Source: Chloroflexota bacterium
Lineage (GTDB): Bacteria > Chloroflexota > Anaerolineae > J036 > Brachytrichaceae
Assembly (NCBI GenBank): GCA_025354985.1
Contig: JANXLU010000062.1
Coordinates: 1-64,000, forward strand
Direction: 5' to 3'
DNA: 64,000 nt
Below the pieces are notes generated by a model. It had not been told where the DNA came from, made no database searches, and saw only the letters and a list, made by a program, of their open reading frames with translations. Shown piece after piece: positions 9,215-12,162 of this stretch. Positions within the stretch are counted from its first letter, which is position 1, and every line of letters starts with the position of its first letter. Position numbers and translations under genes: made by a program.

Positions 9215-9760
9215 CTAAATTACAACGATGAGCACAAACAACACCAAGGCGATCAACACCAACACCAGCGTGGTGCCACTAAAGTACGTAACCGCCGAGT
9301 TCGAGATAAAAAAGAAACTATCCCAACCATTCTGGGCTGCAGGACGGGTAAACAGCGTGGTGCCGCGGGCGGCGTAGGATTCGCCGCGCAAAATACCCAC
9401 CTCGTTTGCGAAATATGCCAATGAGCTAAAAATCATCCAGCCGTTAAAGCCGCCGATTAAAAATGCCAGCAGGCCCTCCTGATATTTGCCACTTCCCGAT
9501 GCCACTTTGTTACGGGTGAGGGCCGGGCCGGCATAGCCAAACAAGGTGATAACCAGAAACGGAATCGCTTTTAGAAACCAGCGATTTTCCAGGCTCCAAC
9601 CAGCCGAAAAACTGTCTATGGGCGCCTTGAAGAAGCTCAGAACGAACAGGGCAAAGATCATGCTAAACATAACCAGCACTTCGCGAATCCAGCCCCGGCT
9701 CGCCCCAACAAAGGCGATCAAAACCACAAAGAACCAAAAAACGACGTTTGCATTAATCAT
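9215..9760 (-). CDS. CvpA-family membrane protein
   Basis: 181 residues with about four membrane helices, of the colicin V production/CvpA family. The N-terminal pattern VVLIAFVGASRGWIREVLVM is characteristic: a membrane helix, then Gly-Arg-Gly-type basic loop, then helix. Helices follow at about 28-45, 60-77 and 160-181. It overlaps murG by eight bases and lies 17 bases before murC, so it is part of the dcw transcript. CvpA is not a usual member of this operon. Its position suggests a link to envelope synthesis, but no activity can be inferred. Confidence 0.75.
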   Translation of the reverse strand: MINANVVFWFFVVLIAFVGASRGWIREVLVMFSMIFALFVLSFFKAPIDSFSAGWSLENRWFLKAIPFLVITLFGYAGPALTRNKVASGSGKYQEGLLAFLIGGFNGWMIFSSLAYFANEVGILRGESYAARGTTLFTRPAAQNGWDSFFFISNSAVTYFSGTTLVLVLIALVLFVLIVVI

Positions 9761-10982
9761 GATGAATTACCTCTTCCAACAATGCGGCAATATTCCGCGC
9801 ACCATCCGATGTTTGGATGGATTTCATGGCTACGCTCATATTGGCCAGCCGGTTATCAGCGGAGAATAGATTCAGTACGGTTTCAGACAGTCCGCCTTGT
9901 GCGTTGTTCAAGTCTCCGTCCTCCAAAATTATGGCGGCGTCTCTACGGGCCAGATACTCGGCGTTTACCCGCTGATAGCGCCAGGCATAGGGATAAGGCA
10001 CAAGCACCGCAGGCAAACCAAGCAAGGGCAACTCGCCTAACGCGCTTGCGCCACTGCGGCAGACCGCTAGATCGGCCGCGGCCATTGCATGTGTCATATC
10101 GTCATGCAGATAGGGATATATCAAATAGCGTGCCTGTTCACCGGGTGATAGTGCCTGGCGTGCCTGATCCACTTCGCTCCAGCCGACCGTGCCGCTCACG
10201 TGGATCACCGTCACCTTTTGCAGCAGGGCGCCAAGGGCGCCGGTGACCGCACGATTTATGCTCTGTGCGCCGCGGCTGCCACCAAACACCAGAACCACGC
10301 GATCCTGATCCGCAATTCCAAAATGCGCACGTCCGGCCTGCCGATTGGTCGCAAAAAACGCCTCTCGCACCGGATAACCCGTAACCGTCATCTTACCGGC
10401 CGGCACATATCGGGCGCTGTCAGCGGTGGTGGTGGCAACGCGGGTGGCAAACTGATTCATAAACTTCACGGCCATCCCGGGCTCGATATCCGGCAAATAC
10501 ACCACACTGGGAACGCCGCGAAACTTCGACGCCACGCTGATGGGCACGCCGACGTAGCCGCCAGTCAACAGTGTGACATCCGGCCTAAACGAACGCACGA
10601 GACGATCGGCCTCAAAGAACCCGCGTGTCAATGCCAGAACACTGCGCGCCTTCTGCGCAGCACCGACACCAGCAATGCCGCCCGAATGAATGGCCACAAA
10701 TGGAATGGACGCCCGGTTTACCAAATCACCCTCCATACCGTCAACGCTTCCCACGAACAACGCGCGCCACGCCGGTGCGCTGTTCGTTTGCAAAGCTGAC
10801 CTCTCGCTGGCGGAGCGAGCGGCGGACATCGCGTCCGATGATGTTTGGCTGACCCGCGCTGAACTTTGGTGAGGCATCAAACACTTGAGCACGCTCAGAG
10901 CGGGAAGCACGTGACCGGCTGTTCCGCCGCCAGACACCAAGACGCGTCGCACGATTGGTTGTAGTGGATACATTGGTTTCAT
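9753..10982 (-). CDS. murG: UDP-GlcNAc:lipid I GlcNAc transferase
   Basis: About 409 residues from the ATG at 10982; an in-frame ATG nine bases later is equally possible. It transfers GlcNAc to lipid I to give lipid II on the cytoplasmic face. The N-terminal GT-B lobe has VLVSGGGTAGHVLPALSVL, later LLTGGYVGVPISVASKFRGVPSVVYLPDIEPG. The C-terminal lobe has LVFGGSRGAQSINRAV and the donor-binding CRSGASALGELPLLGLPAVLVPYP. After the GGGTAGH loop there is a roughly 30-residue Ser/Ala/Arg insert that normal MurG lacks. This insert lies where the reading frame overlaps ftsW by 242 bases. No Shine-Dalgarno is visible. Confidence 0.92.
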   Translation of the reverse strand: MKPMYPLQPIVRRVLVSGGGTAGHVLPALSVLKCLMPHQSSARVSQTSSDAMSAARSASERSALQTNSAPAWRALFVGSVDGMEGDLVNRASIPFVAIHSGGIAGVGAAQKARSVLALTRGFFEADRLVRSFRPDVTLLTGGYVGVPISVASKFRGVPSVVYLPDIEPGMAVKFMNQFATRVATTTADSARYVPAGKMTVTGYPVREAFFATNRQAGRAHFGIADQDRVVLVFGGSRGAQSINRAVTGALGALLQKVTVIHVSGTVGWSEVDQARQALSPGEQARYLIYPYLHDDMTHAMAAADLAVCRSGASALGELPLLGLPAVLVPYPYAWRYQRVNAEYLARRDAAIILEDGDLNNAQGGLSETVLNLFSADNRLANMSVAMKSIQTSDGARNIAALLEEVIHHD

Positions 10983-12162
10983 TGTCCGAGTCTGCCCGTT
11001 CGTTTTCAAAATCCATGACGGATCCGCGCGAAACACTTATCAAAATACCACACGCCGAGAGTACGGCCACGAGCGAGGATCCTCCCCGGCTAAGGAACGG
11101 CACCGGTACACCCGGCAGCGGTAGCAGGTGCAGATTGCCCAGCAAATTTATCGCCATTTGCATGACAAACCAAAACATAACGCCGATCACGAGCAACTGG
11201 CCAAACCGGGTTGGGGTGGCACGGATCAGCCGCATGCAGCGCCACGCCAACAAGCCGAACATGACAAGGATTCCCACCACGCCAAGCCAACCCAGCTCTT
11301 CGGCCAGTGCAGGAATAACACTATCCGTATCCACAGCCGGCAATTTGAACTTGACCTCGCCAAACCCCAGACCGCGGCCAAACAGCCCCCCATTTCCAAA
11401 CGCTTCCATCGCGCGTTGCAAGTGGCTGTGCATCTTGTCATAGTTGCCCAGCCCGGCCACAAACGCCGACCAACGATCAGCAGTATGCCCGCCGCGCAGC
11501 GCGACCACGGCATAAAAGACCGCGGCGGCAACGATCACGCCAAGAATGACCTGCTTCCAGCTTGCGCCTGCCAGAAGAAACATAACGCCGGTGGTCAGCA
11601 CAATGACCAGCGCCGTGGAGAAATCTGGCTGCAGATATACCAAACCGGCGACCAATCCCACGATCATGCTATAAGGCAATAATCCAAACACGATGCTGCT
11701 GACCTGACCGCGCCGTGATGCAAGCCACGTTGCGGCGTAAATGATCATCACAAGCTTGACCATCTCGGAAGGAGTCAGGCTGCCATTGTTAAAAGCACGT
11801 CGGGCACCCGCCACAAACGTGCCGGTGACCATGACCACACCCAATGCCATGACCGCCAAAATGGCCAGCGGAACCGCGGCGTAGCGCAGCAATCCGTAGT
11901 CGGTCAAGCCCAGCAGCATCATGATGCCGAGCCCGATACCGGCCGCGCGCACCTGGTTTATGAACGCATTCGCCGGAATGTCATCGCGCGTCCCTGCGGT
12001 AAATACGGTAGTGGTGTAGGTCGTCATCAGGCCCAGCACGATCAACGCGGCGATGATGGCAACCAGCATCCAATCAGGATCCTTGTAGCCGCGAATCTTC
12101 TTCGCAACCGTTCGGGCACGTTTGCGGAAATCGGCGATTGAAAAGTCGGATATCACGCTCAT
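10741..12162 (-). CDS. ftsW: Lipid II polymerase FtsW (SEDS family)
   Basis: 473 residues. A polytopic SEDS glycosyltransferase that works with FtsI to build septal peptidoglycan. The core (about 30-382) has ten or so helices with GARRAFNNGSLTPSEMVKL, YLQPDFSTALVI, GRGLGFGEVKFKLPAVDTDSVIPALAEELG and the terminal GVPVPFLSRGGSSLVAVLSACG. A 91-residue hydrophilic tail rich in Arg and Ser follows, encoded almost entirely on top of the murG 5' end in another frame. It is called FtsW rather than RodA because of its place between murD and murG and the PBP2-type gene in the same operon. Start is an ATGA overlap with murD. Confidence 0.93.
   Translation of the reverse strand: MSVISDFSIADFRKRARTVAKKIRGYKDPDWMLVAIIAALIVLGLMTTYTTTVFTAGTRDDIPANAFINQVRAAGIGLGIMMLLGLTDYGLLRYAAVPLAILAVMALGVVMVTGTFVAGARRAFNNGSLTPSEMVKLVMIIYAATWLASRRGQVSSIVFGLLPYSMIVGLVAGLVYLQPDFSTALVIVLTTGVMFLLAGASWKQVILGVIVAAAVFYAVVALRGGHTADRWSAFVAGLGNYDKMHSHLQRAMEAFGNGGLFGRGLGFGEVKFKLPAVDTDSVIPALAEELGWLGVVGILVMFGLLAWRCMRLIRATPTRFGQLLVIGVMFWFVMQMAINLLGNLHLLPLPGVPVPFLSRGGSSLVAVLSACGILISVSRGSVMDFENERADSDNETNVSTTTNRATRLGVWRRNSRSRASRSERAQVFDASPKFSAGQPNIIGRDVRRSLRQREVSFANEQRTGVARVVRGKR

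What the first reader, a model, noticed from the sequence alone, without database searches (positions are those of the whole stretch)
10741..10982. ftsW tail and murG start are overprinted for 242 bases
FtsW ends its conserved core near 11016, then reads 91 more residues of Arg/Ser-rich tail. MurG starts at 10982 in another frame, carries its essential GGGTAGH motif inside the overlap, and has an extra 30-residue low-complexity insert there. Both unusual segments lie in the same DNA, so each frame seems to have grown at the expense of the other. A physical or translational coupling between the lipid II maker and the SEDS polymerase is possible.
Basis: partly seen in the sequence, partly recalled or inferred. 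Interest (0 to 1): 0.65.

Follow-up and report, generated by a model that had tools for sequence, protein, structure and literature searches.

The report
FtsW tail written inside murG
In a group of Chloroflexota bacteria the end of one cell-division gene is written, in a shifted reading frame, over the start of the next cell-wall gene for about 200 bases, and evolution has kept both messages readable, which an earlier survey found no real case of at such lengths.

Summary
In the window ftsW (12162-10741, -) and murG (ATG 10982, -) share 242 nt in different frames; counted from the murG start conserved in relatives (GTG 10952) they share 212 nt. It is not a frameshift: in all 27 family loci examined (27 of 28 genomes) ftsW reads 113-227 nt past the murG GGT.GH motif, in the same relative frame. 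Two segments behave differently. Over the MurG motif the FtsW tail shows no constraint of its own. Beyond it, where MurG carries a low-complexity insert, the FtsW frame is under purifying selection. A FtsW motif [IL][IV]GRD[VI][RK] lies there in most loci; those lacking it have short or no inserts, and genera without it show no FtsW constraint. A second family of the phylum (f58) shows the same, more strongly, with its own motif. AlphaFold leaves exactly the MurG insert and the FtsW tail unstructured. Best reading: ftsW lost its upstream stop in a frame where the murG core can hardly encode one, the tail gained a short functional motif, and MurG carries a passenger loop. What the motif binds is unknown. 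Classical stop-start coupling is unlikely.

The parts
10741..12162 (-). ftsW, 473 aa, SEDS polymerase; last ~75 residues predicted disordered
   Evidence: Pfam PF01098 215 bits; AlphaFold pLDDT <50 for residues 399-473
9753..10982 (-). murG from ATG 10982 (409 aa)
   Evidence: Pfam PF03033 and PF04101 above cut-off; TIGR01133 237.4 bits, below its 250.25 cut-off
10950..10952 (-). GTG homologous to the murG start conserved in relatives; probable true start
   Evidence: no Shine-Dalgarno-like 4-mer within 20 nt upstream in the window
10741..10982 (-). two-frame overlap (242 nt; 212 nt if murG starts at 10952). murG codons start at ftsW codon position 2
10911..10931 (-). MurG GGGTAGH; here the FtsW frame is an unconstrained passenger
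   Evidence: FtsW NN/NS 2.35 in this part
10782..10862 (-). MurG insert residues 41-67, pLDDT <50, between helix 1 and strand 2
10822..10845 (-). FtsW-frame motif N-I-I-G-R-D-V-R (residues 440-447), read T-S-S-D-A-M-S-A in MurG

Best explanation
The 3' end of ftsW is overprinted on the 5' end of murG. Inferred origin: ftsW lost its stop just upstream of murG while in the one frame in which the MurG GGT.GH..PAL core can hardly spell a stop (a stop there needs a murG codon ending in T followed by a codon starting AA, AG or GA), so translation had to run on into murG. That made an Arg-rich cytoplasmic tail. Between MurG helix 1 and strand 2, a place that tolerates extra residues, the shared DNA lengthened, and the FtsW frame acquired a short conserved motif there. 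MurG now carries that stretch as a disordered loop whose sequence mainly follows the wobble positions of FtsW codons. Shown: the conserved two-frame overlap, the segment-wise constraint, the link between motif and insert, the recurrence in family f58. Inferred: that the motif is a docking peptide on the cytoplasmic tail of FtsW for a divisome or cell-wall partner. The partner is not known. murG is most likely started from its own site within ftsW.
For: 27 of 27 family loci overlap in the same frame, 113-227 nt past GG. Segment beyond +54: FtsW NN/NS 0.52 in 9 independent pairs, against 1.38 in downstream murG; neutral simulations at transition bias 1 gave mean 0.98, 0 of 60 as low, and the measured bias at 411 fourfold sites is 1.17. 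Genera g8 and g2 give 1.42 and 1.41, like their controls 1.47 and 1.44; g2 lacks the motif, g8 has lost or altered it. G-R-D is invariant in 19 loci through GGA/GGG/GGC, CGN/AGA and GAT/GAC codons while MurG reads [DGAE][AEVG][MTI]. The 7 loci without the motif have inserts of 1-18 aa, the 20 with it 18-50; the tree needs 3 changes, 0 of 500 shuffles as low. In f58 genus g75, 27 of 37 differences in 3 independent pairs are silent in FtsW and change MurG, 0 of 60 null sets as extreme at each setting; downstream 28.5 of 883 in 15 non-independent pairs. The MurG insert and the FtsW tail are the only stretches of 3 or more residues with pLDDT <50 in their models.
Against: No protein or ribosome data. 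The FtsW constraint in the window's family is moderate (about 0.5, against 0.22 in the FtsW core); under a transition bias of 6 the nine-pair result is reached by 4 of 60 null sets. Stop-free reading alone is likely by chance in many GC-rich members. The motif has no known relative: the tail found only itself in its own genome, and AlphaFold gives it no structure. The docking role is inference.
Confidence: 0.72

Rival explanations
1. Neutral read-through. The tail is open only because the DNA is GC-rich and MurG forbids stops; nothing selects the FtsW tail.
For: P(open) is above 0.3 for many family members; over GGT.GH FtsW shows no constraint; genera g8 and g2 fit this.
Against: FtsW-silent changes dominate beyond +54 in g1, g4, g6, g7 and in f58; the GRD motif survives in the diverged window species.
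Confidence: 0.1
2. MurG's insert is what is selected and FtsW is carried along.
For: MurG NN/SN beyond +54 is 0.5-0.6, not 1, in pooled pairs.
Against: NN/SN is 0.92 in the window's genus against 0.33 downstream, and MurG-changing, FtsW-silent sites evolve faster than FtsW-changing ones; the insert is predicted disordered; L024-L026 do without it.
Confidence: 0.07
3. The conserved stretch is a DNA or RNA element, such as a binding site or a structure controlling murG translation.
For: The DNA is shared and conserved; murG initiation lies inside ftsW.
Against: At the G, R and D codons of the motif, variation sits at FtsW third positions except one CGC-to-AGA change that keeps Arg; a nucleic-acid element would not follow FtsW codons. 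No RNA folding test was run.
Confidence: 0.05
4. The overlap exists to couple or limit murG translation: ribosomes reading the FtsW tail pass over the murG start, so MurG output follows FtsW.
For: 24 of 27 loci keep a Shine-Dalgarno-like 4-mer and all 27 a start codon inside ftsW.
Against: It explains the overlap but not protein-level conservation at the far end of the tail; the stop is 134-248 nt past the start, too far for -4/-1 reinitiation; the window species lacks the 4-mer.
Confidence: 0.12
5. Sequencing frameshift or wrong gene call.
For: PMC2478687 accepted none of 715 co-directional annotated overlaps over 60 bp as real (abstract).
Against: The same architecture in 27 family loci plus 9 f58 loci from separate assemblies.
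Confidence: 0.01

Closest known systems
holD-rimI co-directional overlap of Enterobacteria (PMC2478687, section 8)
   Same: Terminal same-strand overlap conserved across relatives and judged real
   Different: At most 56 bp, called there the longest real co-directional one; here 134-248 nt from the conserved murG start, with codon-level evidence for both frames and a passenger insert
rnpA-rpmH of Thermus (passages of PMC9841429)
   Same: Two core genes on one strand sharing long coding DNA in two frames
   Different: Nested, with two adjacent starts and one Shine-Dalgarno; here an end-to-start overlap made by the upstream gene's tail
Overlaps formed by 3' elongation of the upstream gene (abstracts of PMC2542354 and PMC3887535)
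   Same: Inferred origin: lost stop, next stop inside the neighbour
   Different: Those models need no selection on the added tail; here selection on it is detected
Mycobacterial FtsW-FtsZ-PBP3 complex (reference titles and passages in PMC9939409; the role of the tail is recalled)
   Same: FtsW as a docking partner in division
   Different: Partner unknown here, the motif is unrelated as far as seen, and it is encoded inside murG

Membership tests
FtsW/RodA (SEDS) | Pfam PF01098 above gathering score | tested here: met
   215 bits against 26.4
FtsW/RodA (SEDS) | NCBIfam equivalog TIGR02614 (ftsW) cut-off | tested here: not met
   best NCBIfam hit, but 245.3 bits against 337.5; FtsW rather than RodA rests on this ranking and on the position next to murG and murD
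MurG | GT28 domains above Pfam cut-off | tested here: met
   PF04101 102.9 and PF03033 68.5 bits
MurG | NCBIfam equivalog TIGR01133 cut-off | tested here: not met
   237.4 bits against 250.25; match starts at residue 69, after the insert. Identity as MurG rests on Pfam, synteny and the 3S2U/1F0K matches
Real (not misannotated) long co-directional gene overlap | Overlap conserved in relatives | tested here: met
   27 of 27 family loci
Real (not misannotated) long co-directional gene overlap | Both frames under protein-level constraint in the shared DNA | tested here: met
   Beyond +54: FtsW NN/NS 0.52, MurG NN/SN 0.60 in 9 independent pairs. Segment-wise: MurG alone over GGT.GH, and MurG nearly relaxed (0.92) beyond it within g1
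Real (not misannotated) long co-directional gene overlap | Both products made | not testable with these tools
   needs proteomics
Stop-start coupled gene pair (-4/-1) | Stop of the first gene at or within a few nt of the second start | tested here: not met
   134-248 nt in 27 of 27 loci

The most novel reading that the evidence does not exclude
Two families of Chloroflexota have each turned DNA inside an essential neighbour, murG, into a docking peptide for FtsW ([IL][IV]GRD[VI][RK] in one, A[IV]G....GTWR[KQ] in the other), which recruits the polymerase to the same unknown partner, perhaps the lipid II-making complex. The conserved murG core acts as an evolutionary one-way valve: it can hardly encode a stop in that frame, so any ftsW that loses its own stop is driven through it.
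Probability: 0.2. Interest if true: 0.78.

Novelty: new variant of a known kind. Interest (0 to 1): 0.62.

Why it matters
Long same-direction overlaps in bacteria have been treated as annotation errors; one survey of 715 over 60 bp accepted none (PMC2478687, abstract). Here two genes of cell-wall synthesis share over 200 nt, and codon-level change shows which protein owns which part. It gives a clean natural case of a new protein segment made by overprinting, of an enzyme carrying a passenger loop for its neighbour's benefit, and of a possible FtsW docking motif that can be tested. It also warns annotation pipelines that trim such tails.

Tried and rejected
Regular-expression scans for GGGTAGH and TGGYV missed most relatives, whose motif is AGGTAGH and TGGFVGVP; replaced by match-anchored reading. 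A first insert-length rule misplaced strand 2 in many loci and was redone; L131 and L133 are still measured too short, and L177 and L180 were dropped (no ftsW in the stretch; no distance or no match to the rule); L155 was lost earlier because the GG motif was not found in its stretch. Stop-avoidance as a test was weak. A search of the own genome with the FtsW tail found only itself. The FtsW AlphaFold model gave no tail structure. Frameshift, stop-start coupling, nucleic-acid element and MurG-only selection were considered and set aside for the reasons under rivals. The NN/NS method is my own simple count in the manner of OLGenie, not that program; within-genus pairs are not independent, so 9 (family) and 3 (f58) independent pairs were also used. 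Two bootstrap intervals for f58 could not be computed because control counts were zero; one search replaced it with more genomes.

Full report
What is there. On the minus strand the window holds murB, murC, a CvpA-like ORF, murG, ftsW, murD and mraY in a division/cell-wall cluster. ftsW runs from 12162 to its stop at 10741; murG reads in another frame from ATG 10982. A murG codon begins at the second base of an ftsW codon, so FtsW third positions are MurG second positions and MurG third positions are FtsW first positions. The overlap is 242 nt from ATG 10982, or 212 nt from GTG 10952, the homologue of the start seen in all 27 family loci.

Relatives. MurG-like matches were found in 60 of 60 genomes of genus, family and class. 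Of 28 family genomes (own included) 27 gave a usable locus; G027 gave only a weak match (E 1e-4). Named copies of the same loci show Candidatus Roseilinea and Thermoflexales MAGs, Chloroflexota. In 27 of 27 loci ftsW passes through murG's GGT.GH and ends 113-227 nt beyond its first G, always in the same relative frame. Outside the family I measured 68 Chloroflexota loci, a sample chosen from the matches and not random: 55 overlap past GG, all 55 in that same frame; 13 do not. Many of the 55 stop at +44 or shortly after. A stop in this frame needs a murG codon ending in T before a codon starting AA, AG or GA; most core residues cannot give one. That is read from the code and the alignment, not from a separate test.

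Insert and overlap go together. Outside the family the MurG insert has median 21 residues where FtsW ends beyond +74 (17 loci) against 1 (38 loci, 0 to +74) and 2 (13 loci, no overlap); one-sided rank test p = 1.6e-8, not corrected for kinship, with L131 and L133 measured too short. Within the family rho = 0.57.

Which frame is selected. Differences between relatives were sorted by whether they change MurG, FtsW, both or neither. Over the MurG core (up to +54) FtsW NN/NS is 2.35: FtsW is a passenger. Beyond +54, nine independent pairs give FtsW NN/NS 0.52 (0.40-0.67) and MurG NN/SN 0.60, against 1.38 and 0.20 in downstream murG (alignment by DNA; other alignment modes gave 0.47-0.54 for FtsW). 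Without the 7-codon motif FtsW is still 0.53-0.60. By genus: g6 0.53, g1 0.54, g7 0.47, g4 0.53; but g8 1.42 and g2 1.41, close to their controls. g2 lacks the motif altogether; in g8 one of three lacks it and the other two carry GWD or a GRD in altered surroundings. Neutral simulations centred on 0.98 at equal rates, 0.77 at bias 3 and 0.68 at bias 6 with MurG relaxed; 0, 0 and 4 of 60 reached the observed nine-pair value, and 0 of 60 at each setting for the seven pairs of motif-bearing genera. The bias measured at 411 fourfold sites is about 1.2.

The motif. 20 of 27 loci hold [IVL]G[RW]D in the FtsW frame, 19 of them GRD. Across the 19, G, R and D never change although their codons do; MurG meanwhile reads D/G/A/E, A/V/E/G and M/T/I at the matching sites. 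L020 keeps Arg by AGA. The 7 loci without it (L012, L016, L019, L023-L026) have MurG inserts of 1-18 residues, the others 18-50. A tree of 30 rows, made without the overlap region, needs three changes of the motif. The window species sits on a long branch (0.97) and still has NIIGRDVRR.

A second case. In genus g75, with a 61-residue MurG insert, 148 of 227 differences over 15 pairs are silent in FtsW and alter MurG, against 28.5 of 883 downstream. In three independent pairs it is 27 of 37, NN/NS 0.10, 0 of 60 null sets as low at each setting. MurG-altering, FtsW-silent sites change at 0.24, near the 0.29 of MurG-silent sites downstream, so MurG hardly constrains this stretch. Whether the two families' tails share an origin is not known.

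Structure. AlphaFold of window MurG (mean pLDDT 86) leaves only residues 41-67 below 50, between helix 1 and strand 2; solved MurG 3S2U has about 9 residues where the window has about 41. FtsW (mean 78) is below 50 from residue 399 to the end.

Literature. Searches for ftsW with murG and overlapping genes, ftsW with murG, overlap and reading frame, and Roseiflexus with ftsW and murG showed no paper on this overlap in their listings; only open-licence papers are held and I read no paper of those listings. PMC2478687 accepted none of 715 co-directional overlaps over 60 bp and named holD-rimI, up to 56 bp, as the longest real one (abstract and section 8). Thermus rnpA-rpmH is a known nested case (passages). 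So the kind is known, but rarely accepted at this length, and the passenger insert with a conserved tail motif is a new variant.

What remains open. No product was measured. The partner of the FtsW motif, and whether MurG output depends on the overlap, are untested.

Noticed in passing
L113-L121, L123-L125, L127; also L056: MurG of these Chloroflexota reads GGTGGG[VI]YPAL: the His of GGTGGH, which I recall as important in E. coli MurG, is replaced by Gly.
   Followed up: no
9215-9760 (-): 181-aa membrane protein between murG and murC resembles CvpA (Pfam Colicin_V 27.5 bits, just below the 29.3 cut-off); its ATG overlaps the murG end.
   Followed up: partly
L093 (Actinomycetes MAG), L105 (Thermoleophilia MAG): ftsW runs +92 and +119 nt past the murG GG in the same relative frame in another phylum.
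   Followed up: no
L058-L060, L068, L073 (Peregrinibacteria/Peribacteria MAGs): ftsW ends exactly +44 nt past GG in all five, the same end as in several Chloroflexota.
   Followed up: no
G056:C1, G197:C10, G202:C1 and others: MurG lies in open frames of 753-1286 aa, possible fusions with a neighbour or long open upstream frames.
   Followed up: no
10741-10845 of the window and L009, L011, L013: Within the window's genus a second FtsW-frame segment FA[NS]EQ follows the GRD motif.
   Followed up: partly
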